Shown here piece after piece: positions 19,933 through 32,091 of a DNA stretch of 64,000 bases. The stretch is taken from contig NZ_MKUD01000045.1 of NCBI RefSeq assembly GCF_001898575.1, positions 327,382 to 391,381 of the forward strand, given 5' to 3'. Both the position numbers and the translations under genes were made by a program. Origin of the DNA: Spirosoma sp. 48-14. Its GTDB lineage: Bacteria > Bacteroidota > Bacteroidia > Cytophagales > Spirosomataceae. The notes beneath the pieces are model-generated. The model made no database searches. It was given only the letters and a program-made list of their open reading frames with translations, and had not been told where the DNA came from. The number at the start of each line of letters is the position of its first letter. The stretch's first letter is position 1.

Positions 19933-20499
19933 ATGACACTAACCATTCGAAATATGGTGTGCGATCGTTGTAAGCGGGTTGTACGCGAAGAGCTGGAAGC
20001 CCTGGGCCTGACGGTGGCCCGGGTAGAGCTGGGAGAAGTTGACGTAGCCGAAATCCCTCCCAGGCTCACCCTGGATACTGTCCGCCAGACGTTACAGGCC
20101 AACGGCTTCGATCTGGTCGATGATAAAAAGCAGTCGCTGGTGGAGCACATCAAGATTCTGCTGATCAACGAAATCCAGCACCTGAAAAATGAGCGGCTGG
20201 CCTCAGAAAATTATTCGACATTTCTGGAGCGCAAGCTAGGCTATGAATACTCGTACCTGAGTGGCCTGTTTTCTACCAGCGAAGGGCACACTCTGGAAAA
20301 GTACATCATTGCCCTCAAAATCGAAAAAGTTAAAGAATGGCTTCGCTACGACGAACTGACACTCAGCGAAATAGCCTGGCGATTAGGGTATAGCAGTGTG
20401 CAGCATCTTTCGAATCAGTTCAGGCAGGTAACCGGGCAAACACCGGGTCAATTTCGGAAAGCGACTTATGTAGAACGACGTAACCTCGATTCGATTTGA
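19933..20499 (+). CDS. HMA-AraC fusion transcriptional regulator
   Basis: A 188-residue protein. Residues 1-65 look like a heavy-metal-associated ferredoxin-like fold with a CxxC pair (Cys10, Cys13 in MVCDRCKRV) followed by GLTVARVELGEVDV. Residues 85-180 form an AraC-type double helix-turn-helix with LTLSEIAWRLGYSSVQHLSNQFRQVTGQTPGQFR. The architecture suggests that binding of a soft metal such as Cu(I) or Zn(II) by the HMA part controls DNA binding. Co-transcription with the TonB receptor and position inside the copper island support a metal-responsive role. Confidence 0.85.
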   Translation: MTLTIRNMVCDRCKRVVREELEALGLTVARVELGEVDVAEIPPRLTLDTVRQTLQANGFDLVDDKKQSLVEHIKILLINEIQHLKNERLASENYSTFLERKLGYEYSYLSGLFSTSEGHTLEKYIIALKIEKVKEWLRYDELTLSEIAWRLGYSSVQHLSNQFRQVTGQTPGQFRKATYVERRNLDSI

Positions 20500-25432: not shown

Positions 25433-26113
25433 TTATAAATCTGGCTTTAACAGATAGCCCAGCCCTATGAAGGTGTGAATCAGTTTATGATCGAACTCCC
25501 GATCAACCTTATTCCGCAAATAATTAATATATACTTCTACCTTATTGGAATTATGACGTTCGGTCATATTCCAGGCTTTCTCCAGAATCTGTGTCTTCGT
25601 CACCACACGCCCGGCATTTTCGATCAGGTATTCGAGAAGCTGGAACTCACGTACGGTGAGTTTAATTCGTTTATTATCCCGATAGGCCGCTTTTTCAGCA
25701 ATATTCAATTCAAGATTATCAACGCGAAGGATCCTGGGGCCCGTAAAGCCACCTATCCGCCGTCGGTATAAGGCAAAAATGCGGGCCTGAAGCTCAGAGC
25801 TTTCTACCGACTTGACTACATAATCATCAGCCCCGGCATTAAGTCCTCTTACCTTACTGGCCGTATCGTTTTGATTAGACAGCAGCAATACCGGCGTAGA
25901 GTCGTTCTCCTGACGCAACCGCCTGACCAATTCAACACCATCTATTCCAGCGATCTGTGTATCGAGCAAAATCAGATCGAACTGAGCGTGTAGCGCCTGC
26001 GAAAATCCGAGTAAGCCATTACGGGCCAGTTGAATTGTATGTTGGTGATCGGGTAAGATCCGGGTCAGGAATTCAAGATAAGCAGGATCATCCTGGATGA
26101 GTAAAATAGTCAT
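25433..26113 (-). CDS. OmpR/PhoB-family response regulator
   Basis: A 226-residue two-domain regulator. The receiver domain (1-120) has the acidic pocket Asp8/Asp9, phosphoacceptor Asp51 and Lys101. The winged-helix DNA-binding domain (125-226) contains LTVREFQLLEYLIENAGRVVTKTQILEKAW. No histidine kinase gene is adjacent, so it is an orphan in this window. It diverges from tolC-cusBA, and two 11-bp-phased box arrays lie in the intergenic region. The likely role is metal-responsive control of the efflux operon, in the manner of CusR. Confidence 0.9.
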   Translation of the reverse strand: MTILLIQDDPAYLEFLTRILPDHQHTIQLARNGLLGFSQALHAQFDLILLDTQIAGIDGVELVRRLRQENDSTPVLLLSNQNDTASKVRGLNAGADDYVVKSVESSELQARIFALYRRRIGGFTGPRILRVDNLELNIAEKAAYRDNKRIKLTVREFQLLEYLIENAGRVVTKTQILEKAWNMTERHNSNKVEVYINYLRNKVDREFDHKLIHTFIGLGYLLKPDL

Positions 26114-26154: not shown

Positions 26155-26185
26155 CTTGATTTGGCTACAAAAGACTCCGTTCGGC

Positions 26186-26229
26186 TTTAAAGCGATTTTA
26201 AAAGGCTATTAAATCTTCTTTAAAAAATT
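26186..26229. promoter_or_regulatory. array 1: four 11-bp-phased TTTAAA boxes (response-regulator side)
   Basis: Boxes start at 26186 (TTTAAAgcgat), 26197 (TTTAAAaggct), 26208 (ATTAAAtcttc) and 26219 (TTTAAAaaatt), an exact 11-bp period. PhoB/OmpR-family dimers bind tandem 11-bp direct repeats. Read toward the regulator gene, the array ends 14 bp before a minus-strand TTTG (26168-26171), so it overlaps the expected -33 position. Autoregulation is the natural inference. Confidence 0.6.
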
Positions 26230-26285
26230 AAGTAGTAATACGTTGCTCACCTAAGCGGGAGTCGTATAAGTAAAGTTGTCGTTTT

Positions 26286-26329
26286 TTTAAGCAGATATTA
26301 ATGATGGTTTAAGCGGCCCTTAACCAGAG
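26286..26329. promoter_or_regulatory. array 2: four 11-bp-phased TTTAAG boxes (tolC side)
   Basis: Boxes start at 26286 (TTTAAG), 26297 (ATTAAT), 26308 (TTTAAG) and 26319 (CTTAAC), again exactly 11 bp apart. The last box ends 13 bp before a plus-strand TTTG (26338-26341), a possible -7 core for tolC, so the array covers the -33 region as an activator site would. The arrangement mirrors array 1. Confidence 0.6.
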
Positions 26330-26386
26330 CAGTGCTATTTGCAGCCCAAGCCAGTCGATTTTCTGGCCCTACTTTCCGTTTATTTT

Positions 26387-27715
26387 ATGCCGAGTCCTCG
26401 ATCCATTCGCTTTCACTATTATCTGGCCTTACTAGCCTGTCTAAGTATATTTCCATACGTAAATGCTCAGTCATTGAGCACTCCACCAGCCACCGATACC
26501 ACCCGGCAAAGCCTTCCACAACTGGAACAGCAATTTCTGGAACGTAATTTTCAACTCCTTGCCCAGCGGTATCAGATCGACATGGCCGATGCCGCTATTA
26601 CCCAGGCGGGCCTTCGCCCCAACCCTAACCTATGGTTTCAGGGTAATCTGTATAATCCACAAACCCATAAAGTACTACCTTTTGGCCGACCTTCGCAGGC
26701 CGATATTGATGCCGGAGTTTTTAACAGCGGCTACTACGCCGTGCAGCTACAACAGGTGATTTTGCTGGCCGGTAAACGCAGCAAACTGGTTGCGCTGGCC
26801 GAGAGCAACAAAGCGTTAACAAAGCTGGCTTTCCGTGATCTGATGCGGACACTTCATTACCAGTTATATACCACCTATGCCAACCTGTATTATGATTTAC
26901 AGACACTTCGCCTGTTCGACGATGAGGTAACAAGGCAGCAGCGGTTGCTCGAATCGTATCGAATTGCCCTTCAATCGGGAGGGGTGGCTCCTTATGAAGT
27001 GACTCGGCTGGAAGTTGCCATCCGGGATTTGCAGGCCAATATCGCCAATTACCGAACCCAGATTGCTGATGAACAGGCAACCCTGCGCGTACTTCTTCGC
27101 CAGCCGGCCAATACCTTCATTCTGCCGACAGGGCTCCCCGATCGTCAACTGACGCTGCCCCCACTAGCCATAGCCCTGGATTCGGCCCAAACCAACAGAC
27201 CCGACATTGGCCTTTCGCAGGAACAAATCAACAATGCACAGCGTAGCCTGGCGTTGGAAAAGGCCCGCCGGACACCCGACCTCACAACTGGACTCCTGTT
27301 TGAAAAATACGGAAACGCATATATTAATTTTCTGGGCTTTCAGGCATCGATGGACTTACCCCTTCTGAACCGCAATCAGGGGGCTATTCGGTCGGCCGAA
27401 ACAACGTTGAAAGCAGCCTCCGGCGGCCTGGAGAACCAGCAGGTTGTGGTGCAGAGCGATGTATTGAATGCCTACGACAAGCTGAATACCTACTATCAGC
27501 AGTTCACCTCCCGCCCAGCCGGGTATCTGGACCGGATTCAGAATATTTCGATTGAAGCGACCAAAGCCTATAACGCCCGGACCATTGGCCTGCTGGATTA
27601 TCTGGATAAGATCCGAACCTATCAACAGGCGCAACTCAACAACATCAATCTGCTAAATAACCTATTCAATACCCAGCAATTGCTCAACTACACTACCAAT
27701 ACCCGGTTCTTTTAG
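26387..27715 (+). CDS. TolC-family outer-membrane efflux protein (CusC/CzcC-like)
   Basis: A 442-residue protein from the ATG at 26387 (an in-frame TTG at 26339 would put extra residues before the signal peptide). It has an export signal ending near YVNAQ, then two outer-membrane efflux protein repeats of long helices (about 50-230 and 250-440; QQVILLAGKRSKLVALAESN and ALEKARRTPDLTTGLLFEKYG). It forms the outer-membrane exit duct of a tripartite metal pump. It is the first gene of tolC-cusB-cusA; the adaptor starts 3 bp after its stop. Confidence 0.88.
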   Translation: MPSPRSIRFHYYLALLACLSIFPYVNAQSLSTPPATDTTRQSLPQLEQQFLERNFQLLAQRYQIDMADAAITQAGLRPNPNLWFQGNLYNPQTHKVLPFGRPSQADIDAGVFNSGYYAVQLQQVILLAGKRSKLVALAESNKALTKLAFRDLMRTLHYQLYTTYANLYYDLQTLRLFDDEVTRQQRLLESYRIALQSGGVAPYEVTRLEVAIRDLQANIANYRTQIADEQATLRVLLRQPANTFILPTGLPDRQLTLPPLAIALDSAQTNRPDIGLSQEQINNAQRSLALEKARRTPDLTTGLLFEKYGNAYINFLGFQASMDLPLLNRNQGAIRSAETTLKAASGGLENQQVVVQSDVLNAYDKLNTYYQQFTSRPAGYLDRIQNISIEATKAYNARTIGLLDYLDKIRTYQQAQLNNINLLNNLFNTQQLLNYTTNTRFF

Positions 27716-27718
27716 TCT

Positions 27719-28831
27719 ATGAAAACATTCATTCAAGTTATGGCGCTTGGGCTACTCGTCGCTGCCTGCGGTCATAAAAATACAGAAGACGAAAAACTGC
27801 CTACCTCCAGTGCCGATTCATCCAGTAGTTACCTGACCGATTCGGTTCGCCAAATGAGCCCGGAAGATGAACTGACGCTGAATGGTACGGTTACGTTCGA
27901 TCAGGATAATGTGGTACGCGTATTCCCGCTGGTGAGCGGAAACGTCGAAAAAACAAATGCATCGCTGGGAGCCTTTGTACAAAAAGGACAGGATCTTGCC
28001 TTGATTCGCTCTGGTGATATTTCGACGTATACGAATAACTATCAGGCCGACAAGTCGGATCTGGAAGTTGCGCAGCAGCAACTGAAAAATGTGTCGGCCC
28101 AGTTCAAATCAGGCTTTGCCTCGGAAACCGATCTTCTGACCGCCAAAAACAACGTCAAAAAAGCAGAAGACGAGTTGAGCAAATCGGCCAACATTTTACG
28201 CGTCTATGGCGGAACCTCGGGGAACACCAACGGAGCCAGTCAACCCTATTTCACCGTCAAGGCGCCAATTGCTGGCTATATCGTCGAAAAGAACGTCAAC
28301 ACGGGCCAGGATTTACGATCCGATAACCAGAACCCGCTCTATACCATCTCCAGCTTACAACAGATATGGGTACTGGCCAATGTGTATGAGCAGGATATTC
28401 CCGACATCAAGCAGGGACAACCCGTTGATATTCAAGTATTGGCATATCCCGACAAAGTATTTAAAGGCGTTATCAGCAACGTGAGCAGCGTACTCGACGA
28501 GCAGGCACGGGTGCTGAAAGTCCGTATTGTTCTGCCCAATAAAGACGGGCTGCTCAAACCCGACATGTTTGCCACGATCCACGTCCATCTACCCAATTCG
28601 AGTGGTGGAAATGGGGGAAAATCGCTGGCTGTTCCGCAAAAAGCCGTCGTCTTCGACCGTGACCATTATTACGTGATTGTACAGACCGGCAAAGACAAAT
28701 ATGAAGCCCGCGAGGTGACTGTCCTGAAAAACACCACCCGCTACGCTTTTATCGAAGGTGGCAACCTGAAACCGGGCGACATCGTCGTCACCGAAGGCAG
28801 CTTACTCCTCTACAACGATTTAACGGACTAA
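27719..28831 (+). CDS. RND efflux periplasmic adaptor (CusB/CzcB-like), lipoprotein
   Basis: A 370-residue membrane fusion protein. The lipobox is VAACGHK (Cys17). The barrel-sandwich lipoyl halves lie at about 70-100 (VVRVFPLVSGNVEKTNASLGAFVQKGQDL) and 175-205 (YFTVKAPIAGYIVEKNVNTGQDL) around an alpha-hairpin, followed by a beta-barrel and membrane-proximal domain. It bridges the RND pump and TolC across the periplasm. An octamer-repeat hairpin separates it from cusA. Confidence 0.9.
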   Translation: MKTFIQVMALGLLVAACGHKNTEDEKLPTSSADSSSSYLTDSVRQMSPEDELTLNGTVTFDQDNVVRVFPLVSGNVEKTNASLGAFVQKGQDLALIRSGDISTYTNNYQADKSDLEVAQQQLKNVSAQFKSGFASETDLLTAKNNVKKAEDELSKSANILRVYGGTSGNTNGASQPYFTVKAPIAGYIVEKNVNTGQDLRSDNQNPLYTISSLQQIWVLANVYEQDIPDIKQGQPVDIQVLAYPDKVFKGVISNVSSVLDEQARVLKVRIVLPNKDGLLKPDMFATIHVHLPNSSGGNGGKSLAVPQKAVVFDRDHYYVIVQTGKDKYEAREVTVLKNTTRYAFIEGGNLKPGDIVVTEGSLLLYNDLTD

Positions 28832-28944: not shown

Positions 28945-31900
28945 ATGAACAAGTTCATTCGTAGTATCATCACGTTCGCGCTGACCAATCGGTTTGCTAT
29001 CTTTTTTGGGATTGCCCTGATTATCGTAGGTGGCGTTGTTTCGTTTCTGAATACTCCCGTCGAGACGTTTCCCGACGTGACCAATACCAACGTCATTGTC
29101 ATTACCCAGTGGCCGGGCCGCTCGGCCGAAGAGGTGGAGCGCTTTGTGACGCTGCCACTCGAAACCGAACTAAACTCGGTTCCCCGCAAAAGCACGCTTC
29201 GGTCGGTATCCTTGTTCGGCCTGTCGGTTGTGACGATGATTTTCGAAGATGGCGTCGACAACTTTACAGCGCAAACCAACGTAGCCAACCGAATTGCCGA
29301 CGTGGATTTGCCCGATGGTGTTTCGGCCGAGATCGAGCCGCCTTACGGACCAACCGGCGAAATTTATCGGTTCACGCTGGAGAGTAAAACCAAAGACGTT
29401 ACCGAACTCAAAACCATACAGGACTGGGTCATCGAACGGCAGATCAAAAGCGTACCGGGTATTGCCGATGTAGTGAGTTTTGGGGGCAAGGTCAAAACGA
29501 TTGAGGTGAGCCTGAACCCTACCCTGCTGGCAAATTACGGGTTTACCGCCCTCGACGTAGATGATGCCATTAAATCCAGCAATATCAACGTAGGTGGCGA
29601 TGTGATCAAACAGGGAAACCAGTCGCTGGTTGTTCGGGGCATTGGCTTACTGACCAAACCCGAAGATGTAGCCGGCATTATTATCGACAACGTAAATGGT
29701 GTACCGATAAAAGTTCGGGATGTGGCCACGGTGAAAGAAGGTTTTCAGCCCCGACTGGGTATTGTAGGGCGCGACAAGCAGGATGATGTGGTAGAATGTA
29801 TCGTTGTGATGCGGAAAGGCGAGAATCCCAACGATGTGATTCCGGCCCTGAAGGCAAAGATTGACGAGCTGAACACGAAAATCCTGCCGAAAGATGTCAA
29901 AATCAAGACCTTCTACGACCGCACCACGCTCAACAATTATACACTGCATACGGTGGGCGAAAATGTGCTGACGGGTATTTTCCTGGTGACGCTCATCCTG
30001 CTAATCTTCCTGGCCGACTGGCGTACAACGCTCACTGTAGCCATTGTGATTCCGCTGGCCCTGCTGTTTGCCTTTATCTGCCTCCGGGCCCGTGGCATGA
30101 CGGCTAACCTGCTCAGTATCGGCGCCCTGGACTTTGGCATCATCATCGACGGAGCTGTGGTAATGGTCGAAGGGCTCTTTGTTATGCTGGCCCATAATGC
30201 CGAAAAAATGGGCATGATGAAATTTAACAAGCGAGCAAAACTGAGCTGGATCACCCAAAATGCAACGGAGTTGGGCAAATCCATTTTCACGTCCAAAATC
30301 ATCATTATTACGGCCCTGCTTCCCATTTTCACCTTCCAGAAAGTAGAAGGCAAGCTGTTTAGTCCCTTAGCCTGGACCATTGGTTTTGCCCTGACCGGGT
30401 CGCTGATCGTTAGTCTTACCCTGATTCCTCTCCTCTGTAGCCTGTTGTTGAACAAAAACGTTCGCGAACGGCACAATCCTGTCGTAACGGGTCTGGAGAG
30501 AGCGTATGTTCCGGCCCTAAACTGGGCTATTCGAAAACCCGCAGCGATTATTTCAATTGCTATTGGGGCACTCGCTTTTTCGCTTTACCTGTTTCTGTTT
30601 CACATTGGCTCGGAGTTTCTACCGCAGTTGAATGAAGGGTCGATTTATGTGCGGGCCAGCCTCCCCTACTCGGTTGCGCTGGACGAAAGCTATGCCTATA
30701 CCCGTAAGTTCCGGGCCATTTTTGAGGAGTTCCCCGAGGTTCGGGGCGTCATTTCGCAAACGGGCCGACCGAACGACGGCACTGACCCCACTGGATTTTT
30801 CAACAATGAATTTTTCGTTGATCTCTATCCGAAAGAAGAATGGAAACGGGATATTACCAAAGACGAACTTATCGCTCAGATGCAGCAGAAACTAGCTCGC
30901 TTCCGGGGTATTTCGTTCAACTTCTCGCAGCCCATTTCCGACAATGTTGAAGAAGCCGTGTCGGGGGTGAAAGGATCGATGGCGATCAAGATTATTGGCC
31001 AGGATTTAGATGTGCTTGATAAAGAAGCCACTAAAGTGTTCAACGTAATGAAAACCGTGCGGGGGGTTAGTGATTTGGGTGTCTTTCGTAACCTGGGCCA
31101 GCCGGAGTTCCGCATTCTGCTCGATCCGCAGAAACTGGCGCTGTACAACGTACCGACCGATGTGGCCCAGTCTGTCATTGAAACCGCTATCGGCGGCAAA
31201 ACCGTGACCCAGTTCTACGAGGGCGAACGCCATTTCGACATAAAAGTGCGCTACGACGAACGGTTTCGGTATTCGCCCGAACTAATTGAGAACTTGCTGG
31301 TCCCTACGCGTTCGGGTAGTAAAATTCCCCTGAAAGAGTTGGCGTACATTGGCACTCGTTCGGGACCCGCGTTTGTTTACCGAGAAAACAACGCCCGGTT
31401 CATTGCCATCAAGTTTTCGGTGCGGGATCGCGACCTGGGCAGTACCATTGCCGAAGCACAGAAAAAAGTGGGCCAGCAGGTCAAACTTCCCGAAGGTTTT
31501 CAAATGCGCTGGGCGGGTGAATTCGAGAACCAGACCCGGGCCGAGCGCCAGTTGGCCATTGTGGTTCCGATTAGTATCACCATCATTTTTCTGATTCTGC
31601 TATTCACGTTTGGCAGCGCGCTGGATGCGGCCCTGATTATTCTGAACGTACCCTTTGCCCTGATTGGCGGTATGCTCGCCCTTTGGCTGACGGGCATTAA
31701 CTTCAGCATTTCGGCTGGGGTGGGTTTCATCTGTTTGTTTGGCGTATCGGTGCAGGATGGGGTTATTTTGATTAACCGCTTCAAGGAAAACCTGCACAAT
31801 AAACTGCCCATCAGTGAGGCCATTCGGGAAGGAGCCTTGACCAGGGTACGCCCGGTGGTGATGACAGCACTCATGGCGTCGCTTGGCCTGTTGCCAGCCG

Positions 31901-32091
31901 CCTTATCGACCGGCATTGGCTCCGAGACGCAGAAACCACTGGCGACCGTTATGATTGGTGGACTAATAACCTGTACGATTTTGTCGCTGCTGATCCTGCC
32001 GGTTACCTATGAGCTGATTCATAGCCGACGTGCCCGGAAAGAACTGGCTCGCCATGAGTCGAAAAAGGTCCAAATACCTCATCACCCGTAA
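28945..32091 (+). CDS. CusA/CzcA-family heavy-metal RND efflux pump
   Basis: A 1048-residue inner-membrane pump with 12 transmembrane helices and two large periplasmic loops. The proton-relay signature DFGIIIDGAVVMVE gives Asp396, Asp402 and Glu409, typical of heavy-metal RND (HME) pumps. FPDVTNTNVIVITQWPGRSAEEVER lies at the usual N-terminal porter position. The substrate (Cu/Ag, or Co/Zn/Cd) cannot be read with certainty, but the neighbouring copper proteins favour Cu(I)/Ag(I). It is the last gene of the operon. Confidence 0.92.
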   Translation: MNKFIRSIITFALTNRFAIFFGIALIIVGGVVSFLNTPVETFPDVTNTNVIVITQWPGRSAEEVERFVTLPLETELNSVPRKSTLRSVSLFGLSVVTMIFEDGVDNFTAQTNVANRIADVDLPDGVSAEIEPPYGPTGEIYRFTLESKTKDVTELKTIQDWVIERQIKSVPGIADVVSFGGKVKTIEVSLNPTLLANYGFTALDVDDAIKSSNINVGGDVIKQGNQSLVVRGIGLLTKPEDVAGIIIDNVNGVPIKVRDVATVKEGFQPRLGIVGRDKQDDVVECIVVMRKGENPNDVIPALKAKIDELNTKILPKDVKIKTFYDRTTLNNYTLHTVGENVLTGIFLVTLILLIFLADWRTTLTVAIVIPLALLFAFICLRARGMTANLLSIGALDFGIIIDGAVVMVEGLFVMLAHNAEKMGMMKFNKRAKLSWITQNATELGKSIFTSKIIIITALLPIFTFQKVEGKLFSPLAWTIGFALTGSLIVSLTLIPLLCSLLLNKNVRERHNPVVTGLERAYVPALNWAIRKPAAIISIAIGALAFSLYLFLFHIGSEFLPQLNEGSIYVRASLPYSVALDESYAYTRKFRAIFEEFPEVRGVISQTGRPNDGTDPTGFFNNEFFVDLYPKEEWKRDITKDELIAQMQQKLARFRGISFNFSQPISDNVEEAVSGVKGSMAIKIIGQDLDVLDKEATKVFNVMKTVRGVSDLGVFRNLGQPEFRILLDPQKLALYNVPTDVAQSVIETAIGGKTVTQFYEGERHFDIKVRYDERFRYSPELIENLLVPTRSGSKIPLKELAYIGTRSGPAFVYRENNARFIAIKFSVRDRDLGSTIAEAQKKVGQQVKLPEGFQMRWAGEFENQTRAERQLAIVVPISITIIFLILLFTFGSALDAALIILNVPFALIGGMLALWLTGINFSISAGVGFICLFGVSVQDGVILINRFKENLHNKLPISEAIREGALTRVRPVVMTALMASLGLLPAALSTGIGSETQKPLATVMIGGLITCTILSLLILPVTYELIHSRRARKELARHESKKVQIPHHP

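What the first reader, a model, noticed from the sequence alone, without database searches (positions are those of the whole stretch)
26186..26329. Two mirrored arrays of four 11-bp-phased TTTAAR boxes between response regulator and tolC-cusBA
Direct reading shows boxes at 26186, 26197, 26208, 26219 and at 26286, 26297, 26308, 26319, each array with an exact 11-bp period. In each direction the nearest box is 13-14 bp from a TTTG that could be the -7 core (26338-26341 plus strand; 26168-26171 minus strand), so each array covers the -33 position. PhoB/OmpR-family regulators bind 11-bp tandem repeats. This suggests the adjacent orphan regulator activates both its own gene and the pump, at a site unlike the palindromic CusR box of E. 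coli.
Basis: partly seen in the sequence, partly recalled or inferred. Interest (0 to 1): 0.78.

Follow-up and report, generated by a model that had tools for sequence, protein, structure and literature searches.

The report
Paired four-box activator sites, pump promoters
Between a metal-pump operon and a regulator gene in a Spirosoma genome lie two back-to-back control sites, each four TTAA boxes spaced exactly one DNA turn apart at a fixed distance from a promoter; they are conserved in relatives and look like landing pads for a known kind of switch protein, although which family member lands there is open.

Summary
Eight TTAA cores lie at exact 11-bp steps (26187-26220 and 26287-26320); none of 20,000 shuffles of the intergenic region gave even one such quadruplet. 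Thirteen of 13 loci chosen by regulator protein (62-100% identity) carry both arrays, each facing its own gene and ending exactly 15 bp before TTTG (regulator side, 12 of 13) or TTG (tolC side, 13 of 13). The architecture recurs: 150 quadruplet matches against 2 in the control over 36 genomes of the genus; quadruplet plus TTTG in 32 of 395 genomes of the phylum, control 2.

Best reading: class-II-type activator sites for OmpR/PhoB-family response regulators, of the TTTAAG-N5 kind known for PmrA, HP1043 and CiaR, with four half-sites instead of two. The neighbouring regulator is an orphan with a degenerate (pseudo-)receiver.

That this regulator drives both genes is only partly supported. The tolC array is intact in six genomes where no orthologue of the regulator was found; in one of them the former regulator-side array has decayed while the tolC array is perfect. 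A CusR-like paralogue, present in all six, is the likely second reader.

The parts
26187..26223 (-). Regulator-side array: four TTAA cores at 11-bp steps, facing the response-regulator gene (about -60 to -24 of the inferred start)
   Evidence: present in 13 of 13 orthologous loci at 62% identity or more
26168..26171 (-). TTTG, inferred -7 core of the regulator promoter, 15 bp after the last TTAA
   Evidence: 12 of 13 orthologues at exactly 15
26287..26323 (+). tolC-side array: four TTAA cores at 11-bp steps, facing tolC-cusBA
   Evidence: 13 of 13 regulator orthologue loci; 16 of 18 loci of this TolC subfamily
26338..26341 (+). TTTG, inferred -7 core of the tolC promoter (TA(C/T)TTGC in the 13 loci)
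   Evidence: TTG at exactly 15 in 13 of 13
25433..26113 (-). Orphan OmpR/PhoB-family response regulator, 226 aa, receiver with Gln in place of the first acidic residue (pseudo-receiver)
26387..27715 (+). TolC-like outer-membrane factor; the ATG at 26387 is the likely start, since the listed TTG at 26339 lies inside the inferred -7 core
   Evidence: start codon inferred
27719..28831 (+). CusB-like periplasmic adaptor
   Evidence: RND_mfp 147.6 bits, cutoff 94.9
28945..32091 (+). CusA/CzcA-family heavy-metal RND transporter
   Evidence: TIGR00914, 958 bits, cutoff 701

Best explanation
Two back-to-back activator-dependent promoters. [quoted passage not shown] One promoter drives the orphan regulator, the other tolC-cusBA. 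The orphan regulator has a degenerate receiver and probably acts without phosphorylation. I think it binds both arrays, amplifying itself and the pump, and that a phosphorylated CusR-like paralogue in the same genome (beside CopA, CusA and a CopS-like kinase) also reads the tolC array and perhaps switches on the orphan. Shown by sequence: arrays, orientation, fixed register, conservation, recurrence, receiver degeneracy, persistence of the tolC array without the orphan. Inferred: binding, activation, which regulator, and the metal signal.
For: 13 of 13 orthologues at 62% or more carry both arrays; the TTTG/TTG register is fixed while the gap between arrays varies from 49 to 145 bp, so the two are separate promoters. 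Among 37 quadruplet loci, TTTG lies 14 or 15 bp after the last TTAA at 25 of 74 ends (20 at 15, 5 at 14, none at 13 or 16); 24 of 37 loci have it, against a mean of 0.86 and a maximum of 4 for other offset pairs. None of the 37 lies inside an ORF of 80 aa or more called by my script. Genus totals: 150 matches against 2 control. In this genome quadruplets precede genes for metal efflux, by homology, at C45 (this locus), C10 (CusA family), C18 (TolC copy) and C32 (CusB-like), and one lies by another regulator-kinase pair at C9. Recognition helices of the C9 and C10 regulators are very similar to that of the orphan. An array lies upstream of the regulator gene in 16 of 16 orthologues seen: four or more boxes in 13, three in the 3 that have another neighbour (L014, L015, L266). 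Receiver of 15 orthologues: DD1 is Gln in 13, DD2 non-acidic in 12, D lost in 2, K lost in 11, Phe at K+2 absent in 15, while 15 of 15 paralogues keep all of these. Literature (passages): HP1043, CiaR and PmrA sites are TTTAAG-N5-TTTAAG.
Against: No binding or expression data. The tolC array persists without the regulator in 6 genomes, so the regulator is not its only reader. Only 5 of 72 loci around related regulators outside the orthologue group hold even a three-box array, so this kind of DNA-binding domain does not regularly go with such an array nearby. In this genome 2 of 8 quadruplets (C58, C78) lack TTTG at 14-15 bp and lie near genes of other function, and 13 of the 37 loci lack it. 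Outside the genus the bare quadruplet can be background: G038 has 3 matches against 63 in the control, and two boxes plus TTTG do not exceed the control there (70 against 104 in 23 genomes). In the window's own protein DD2, D51, S79 and K101 are kept and only Gln-7 departs, so phosphorylation is not excluded for this species.
Confidence: 0.72

Rival explanations
1. Both arrays are bound by a different regulator only, most likely the CusR-like paralogue at G000:C10 with its CopS-like kinase; the orphan regulator is just one of its targets and acts elsewhere or as a competitor.
For: tolC array intact in 6 genomes without the orphan; the C10 type is the best remaining match in each of those 6; the 15 paralogues tabulated, several of this type, keep all five receiver residues; the C10 copy has its own quadruplet before CusA; similar recognition helix.
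Against: An array lies before the orphan gene in 16 of 16 orthologues, also where the gene has another neighbour, as expected for self-regulation; in the 24 genomes compared the orphan occurs only with this TolC subfamily.
Confidence: 0.3
2. The repeats are phased AT tracts that bend DNA or act as UP-like elements, without a specific regulator.
For: AT-rich motif in helical phase upstream of promoters.
Against: The period is 11 bp, not 10 or 12: triplets number 20, 3 and 1. The reversed control AATT, also AT-rich, is not enriched in this genome (1 against 8). That TTTAAA bends less than AAATTT is recalled, not from a call.
Confidence: 0.04
3. Chance repeats in an AT-rich spacer.
For: The intergenic region is 38% G+C in a 49% window.
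Against: 0 of 20,000 shuffles; 13 of 13 orthologues; fixed promoter register.
Confidence: 0.005

Closest known systems
HP1043 (HsrA) of Helicobacter pylori (PMC5253667, PMC8345958; passages seen)
   Same: Orphan OmpR/PhoB regulator with degenerate receiver; site TTTAAG-N5-TTTAAG, 11 bp centre to centre, overlapping promoter sequences; ttTAAG-N5-tTTAAg the important letters by mutagenesis.
   Different: Two hexamers per site, essential master regulator in another phylum; here four boxes in a row, twice, at a metal-efflux operon, with a Bacteroidota-type -7 core.
PmrA box (PMC10927774; passages seen) and CiaR box (PMC9603419; passages seen)
   Same: Direct repeats of TTTAAG or YTTAAK; TTTAAG pairs with a 5-bp gap; bound by regulators of two-component systems (PmrA stated there to be OmpR/PhoB family).
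   Different: Two half-sites; regulators with partner kinases; the window protein scores 133 bits to the PmrA model against a cutoff of 330.
Bacillus subtilis PhoP sites with four TTAACA-like repeats at about 11 bp (recalled; searches listed no paper on it)
   Same: Four tandem half-sites covering the -35 region (recalled).
   Different: Phosphate response, Gram-positive promoter, TTAACA rather than TTAA with free flanks (recalled).
CusR/CopR/AgrR regulators of metal efflux (AgrR: PMC7380067; passages seen)
   Same: OmpR-family regulators of metal resistance; AgrR is active without phosphorylation, self-activating and suggested to act as a Type II activator.
   Different: The AgrR core box is an inverted repeat of ATTACA with a 4-bp spacer; the E. 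coli CusR box (recalled) is a palindrome and none is here. The window regulator scores 184 bits to TIGR01387 against a cutoff of 279.

Membership tests
OmpR/PhoB-family response regulator (25433-26113) | Receiver domain plus C-terminal Trans_reg_C domain | tested here: met
   PF00072 87.9 bits, PF00486 80.1 bits, both above cutoff
Pseudo-receiver (atypical) response regulator as defined in PMC12632262 | At least one of the five active-site residues missing | tested here: met
   Gln at DD1 in the window protein; DD2 also non-acidic in 12 of 15 orthologues
Aspartate-less receiver | Phospho-acceptor Asp missing | tested here: not met
   Asp kept in the window protein; Gly in L014 and L015, and by eye in L266
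Orphan regulator | No histidine kinase gene alongside | tested here: met
   none in the window or in 13 of 14 orthologue loci by motif screen (both positive controls found; loci of 4.7-19 kb, L081 and L091 being short contigs); L090 has a hybrid kinase about 2.7 kb away
TTTAAG-N5 tandem box of the PmrA/HP1043/CiaR kind | TTAA cores at 11 bp on one helix face | tested here: met
TTTAAG-N5 tandem box of the PmrA/HP1043/CiaR kind | Two half-sites per site | tested here: not met
   four or more in 13 of 13; 8 of 12 runs of three or more in this genome have four boxes
TTTAAG-N5 tandem box of the PmrA/HP1043/CiaR kind | Bound by the regulator in vitro | not testable with these tools
   needs protein and DNA
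CusR/CopR/SilR heavy-metal regulator (TIGR01387) | Score above curated cutoff | tested here: not met
   184.1 bits, cutoff 279.2 (the best-scoring NCBIfam model nevertheless); the C10 paralogue 265.9, also below
E. coli CusR box | Palindrome AATGACAANNTTGTCATT (recalled) | tested here: not met
   no match with up to 3 mismatches in 64 kb
Bacteroidota sigma-A promoter (-7 TAnnTTTG, PMC9723704) | TTTG core of the -7 box with TA four bases before | tested here: inconclusive
   TTTG is there on both sides in the window; the TA is not in place: the regulator promoter reads GTCTTTTG in L001-L003, window included, CACnTTTG in 9 of 13 and CACTTTAG in L013; tolC reads TA(C/T)TTGC, one base short
Class II activator site | Operator overlaps -33/-35 and activator contacts polymerase | tested here: inconclusive
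   position fits; start sites not mapped, contact not testable

The most novel reading that the evidence does not exclude
A two-tier metal switch on shared operators: a canonical CusR-CopS-like pair senses metal, its phosphorylated regulator binds TTAA quadruplets before the metal pumps and before the orphan gene, and the orphan, whose receiver has drifted towards an always-active pseudo-receiver (Phe at K+2 absent in 15 of 15), then holds the same class of operators as a self-sustaining amplifier. The four-box array with TTTG at 14-15 bp would be a general promoter class for such regulators in Bacteroidota.
Probability: 0.27. Interest if true: 0.7.

Novelty: new variant of a known kind. Interest (0 to 1): 0.52.

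Why it matters
How OmpR/PhoB regulators recognise promoters in Bacteroidota, which use an unusual -7/-33 promoter, is to my knowledge little described. The listings of four literature searches (in one search only 10 of 217 papers were listed) showed no title on a TTAA-quadruplet site in that phylum; only the held open library was searched. A fixed formula (four TTAA at 11 bp, 14-15 bp, TTTG) gives a searchable promoter class and predicts regulons. The locus also offers a natural experiment on how a pseudo-receiver regulator may share operators with canonical paralogues, which bears on the question, called open in PMC12632262, of how pseudo-receivers are turned on and off.

Tried and rejected
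Chance and AT-richness: rejected by shuffles and conservation. Intrinsic curvature: in this genome the AATT control is not enriched and periods 10 and 12 are not; near related regulators TTAA triplets occur at 11 bp and hardly at nine other periods. E. coli CusR palindrome: absent. A fixed-length loop between the two arrays: rejected, the gap varies from 49 to 145 bp. Two-box sites as a large hidden regulon: two boxes plus TTTG at 15 number 190 against 72 control in 36 genomes of the genus, an excess of about 3 per genome, roughly what the quadruplets give; in the 23 other genomes 70 against 104. AlphaFold model of the regulator: mean pLDDT 67.8, block means of the DNA-binding half about 61 or lower, so not used. 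First kinase motif screen missed one of two positive controls and was replaced by a looser one. First orientation of loci was wrong for minus-strand loci and was redone. No paper on the B. subtilis PhoP repeats was listed. The profile search of solved structures added nothing beyond.

Limits of counts: one search listed only part of its match rows. The 37 loci L031-L067 are one locus for each of 30 genomes (this one included) plus the other seven quadruplets of this genome; two of the 37 are the arrays of the finding. The 150 counts overlapping matches in runs of five or more separately. In one search the TTAA columns are conserved by construction once the quadruplets are chosen, so only the presence of arrays, the flanks and the TTTG/TTG are evidence; for L007 and L010, which have five boxes on the regulator side, the four nearest the gene were used. 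Of the matches in 59 relatives the 13 loci at 62% or more and two at 56-57% were treated as orthologues; a sixteenth (L266) came and is not in the residue table. L016-L030 are 15 paralogues among many more; none has a run of three within 600 bp upstream. TolC was searched in 36 genomes, 24 of them of this genus; G034 was added by hand. The truncated tolC beside the regulator in G021 is not among the 18 TolC loci; the two of the 18 without an array are G008 and a second copy in G006. The 16 triplet matches come from only 5 of 72 loci. G002 is 84% complete, so absence of the regulator there is weaker.

Full report
What is there. Between the response-regulator gene (25433-26113, minus) and a tolC-cusB-cusA operon (tolC probably from 26387, plus) lie two arrays of four TTAA cores at exact 11-bp steps: 26187-26223 and 26287-26323. 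Chance does not explain it: 0 of 20,000 dinucleotide shuffles of the intergenic region gave one quadruplet, and the genome holds 8 quadruplets against 1 for the reversed control, with triplets 20 at 11 bp (16 of them inside the quadruplets; control 5), 3 at 10 bp (control 6) and 1 at 12 bp (control 3).

Conservation. The regulator has orthologues at 62-100% identity in 13 genomes, this one included, all of one genus. The genus is Spirosoma: contigs of the same length in the named collection belong to S. panaciterrae, S. endophyticum, S. telluris, S. fluviale and S. validum. All 13 carry two arrays of at least four boxes upstream of the regulator. Two further orthologues at 56-57% (L014, L015), where the gene has another neighbour, keep three boxes on the regulator side and two beyond; a third such orthologue (L266) also has three. 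Fifteen paralogues at about 40-44% have no run of three within 600 bp upstream. The flanks show a shared polarity (box 1 mostly TTTTTAA(A/G), box 2 TTAAT) and each array faces its own gene. TTTG follows the last TTAA by exactly 15 bp at the regulator in 12 of 13 (TTTA in L013), and TTG by exactly 15 bp at tolC in 13 of 13, while the gap between the arrays runs from 49 to 145 bp. So these look like two independent promoters with a strict register between operator and -7 element.

A wider class. Of 59 relatives (own genome included) 42 hold a quadruplet; in the 36 of the genus there are 150 matches against 2 in the control, 33 of 36 genomes having at least one. Outside the genus the picture is mixed: G040 has 9 against 0, G055 5 against 1, but G038 has 3 against 63 in the control. 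Across 37 quadruplet loci TTTG lies 14 or 15 bp after the last box at 25 of 74 ends and never at 13 or 16; 24 of 37 loci have it, 13 do not; other offset pairs average 0.86, at most 4 (three TTTG lie at 26, which would fit one more, degenerate box). No locus of the 37 lies within an ORF called by my script. With TTTG included, 32 of 395 genomes drawn from the phylum hold the pattern, against 2 genomes with a control match. Taking -12 to -5 for the -7 box as mapped in Flavobacterium (PMC9723704, passages seen), the arrays span about -60 to -24 and take the place of a -33 element. This position and the 11-bp tandem repeat are those of OmpR/PhoB-type activators. In print, HP1043 (PMC5253667, PMC8345958), CiaR (PMC9603419) and PmrA (PMC10927774) bind TTTAAG-N5-TTTAAG (passages seen). 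Those sites have two half-sites; here four is the rule. The -7 boxes themselves are imperfect: GTCTTTTG at the regulator in this species and its two nearest relatives, CACnTTTG in 9 of 13 loci, TA(C/T)TTGC at tolC.

The regulator. It is an OmpR/PhoB-family protein with no kinase gene found by motif in the window or in 13 of 14 orthologue loci (the exception L090 has a hybrid kinase about 2.7 kb off). Its receiver is degenerate: in 15 orthologues the first acidic residue is Gln in 13, the second is not acidic in 12, the phospho-acceptor is Gly in 2, the Lys is replaced in 11, and the Phe two places after the Lys is absent in all 15; 15 of 15 paralogues keep every one of these. L266 adds an insertion of 29 residues in the receiver. 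By the definition in PMC12632262 (passages seen) it is a pseudo-receiver; that paper also says that Phe at K+2 biases CheY towards inactive conformations and that Ala, Ile, Leu and Val shift it most towards active ones. The window protein has Val there; 10 of 15 orthologues have Cys and 2 Gly, which that passage does not cover. The window protein keeps the second acidic residue, Asp, Ser and Lys, so some phosphorylation cannot be excluded.

Who reads the arrays. Three facts complicate it. First, among 18 loci of this TolC subfamily (59% identity or more), 16 have a quadruplet, but the regulator is adjacent at only 6 of the 16; of the other 10, five are in genomes whose regulator lies elsewhere and five (G014, G003, G023, G006, G002) in genomes where no orthologue was found. 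Second, G034 has no orthologue either: at its tolC locus the place of the regulator-side array holds a decayed copy (TTAA, TCAA, then a 10-bp instead of an 11-bp step, TTAA, TTAA), while its tolC array is perfect. Third, two paralogous regulator-kinase pairs of this genome have quadruplets nearby: C10, CusR-like with a CopS-like kinase (both below the curated cutoffs), a CusA-family pump and a copper-type P-ATPase, and C9. Their recognition helices (NVIDVYVNFLRKKI, NVIEVYINFLRKKI) are close to that of the orphan (NKVEVYINYLRNKV), and a C10-type regulator is the best remaining match in all six genomes without the orphan. Four quadruplet-bearing loci of this genome, this one included, precede genes that by homology serve metal efflux. 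On the other side, an array lies before the orphan gene in 16 of 16 orthologues seen, and in 24 genomes compared the orphan occurs only with this TolC subfamily (9 of 15 against 0 of 9; p = 0.007 without allowing for relatedness). I therefore favour shared reading: the orphan and a CusR-like paralogue both use these operators. This step is inference.

Verdict. Observation confirmed; interpretation partly supported; a new variant (four half-sites, strict register to a Bacteroidota-type -7 core, pseudo-receiver neighbour) of a known kind of operator. Copper or silver as the signal rests on gene content: a CusA/CzcA-family pump, a DUF326 protein that resembles Csp1 copper storage (below the NCBIfam cutoff) and an HMA-domain protein nearby.

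Noticed in passing
window 19933-20499 (+): AraC-type HTH protein with an N-terminal stretch that by eye resembles a metal-binding HMA domain (CDRC motif); Pfam reports the HTH and only a sub-threshold unrelated match. Similar ORFs lie in the same island in L078 and L079. A possible one-component metal sensor.
   Followed up: partly
G000:C18:86076-86112 (L070 6077-6113): Second tolC copy (84% identical) with a single tolC-type quadruplet and TTTG, in the neighbourhood where other species keep the regulator gene; looks like the ancestral locus without the regulator.
   Followed up: partly
L266 1117-1884 (G020): Regulator orthologue with a 29-residue insertion in the receiver and Gly at the phospho-site, yet a well-conserved DNA-binding domain and a three-box array upstream.
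   Followed up: partly
L239 9578-10297 (G008): A strongly diverged response regulator lies directly upstream of tolC-cusBA in the same direction, with no TTAA array: a different wiring of the same pump.
   Followed up: no
L079 9739-10029 (G021): Where tolC would be, next to the regulator, only a short ORF is called, although both arrays and cusBA remain.
   Followed up: no
G000:C58:44408-44444 and G000:C78:22573-22609: Two quadruplets without TTTG at 14-15 bp, near a 2-oxoglutarate dehydrogenase gene and a SulP-type transporter gene; reader unknown.
   Followed up: partly
L220-L230 (genomes of the phylum outside the class of the window): Quadruplets mostly of the form TTAACA with TTTG, in two other families (f53 and f35); they resemble Pho-box repeats (recalled) and may be phosphate-regulator promoters.
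   Followed up: no
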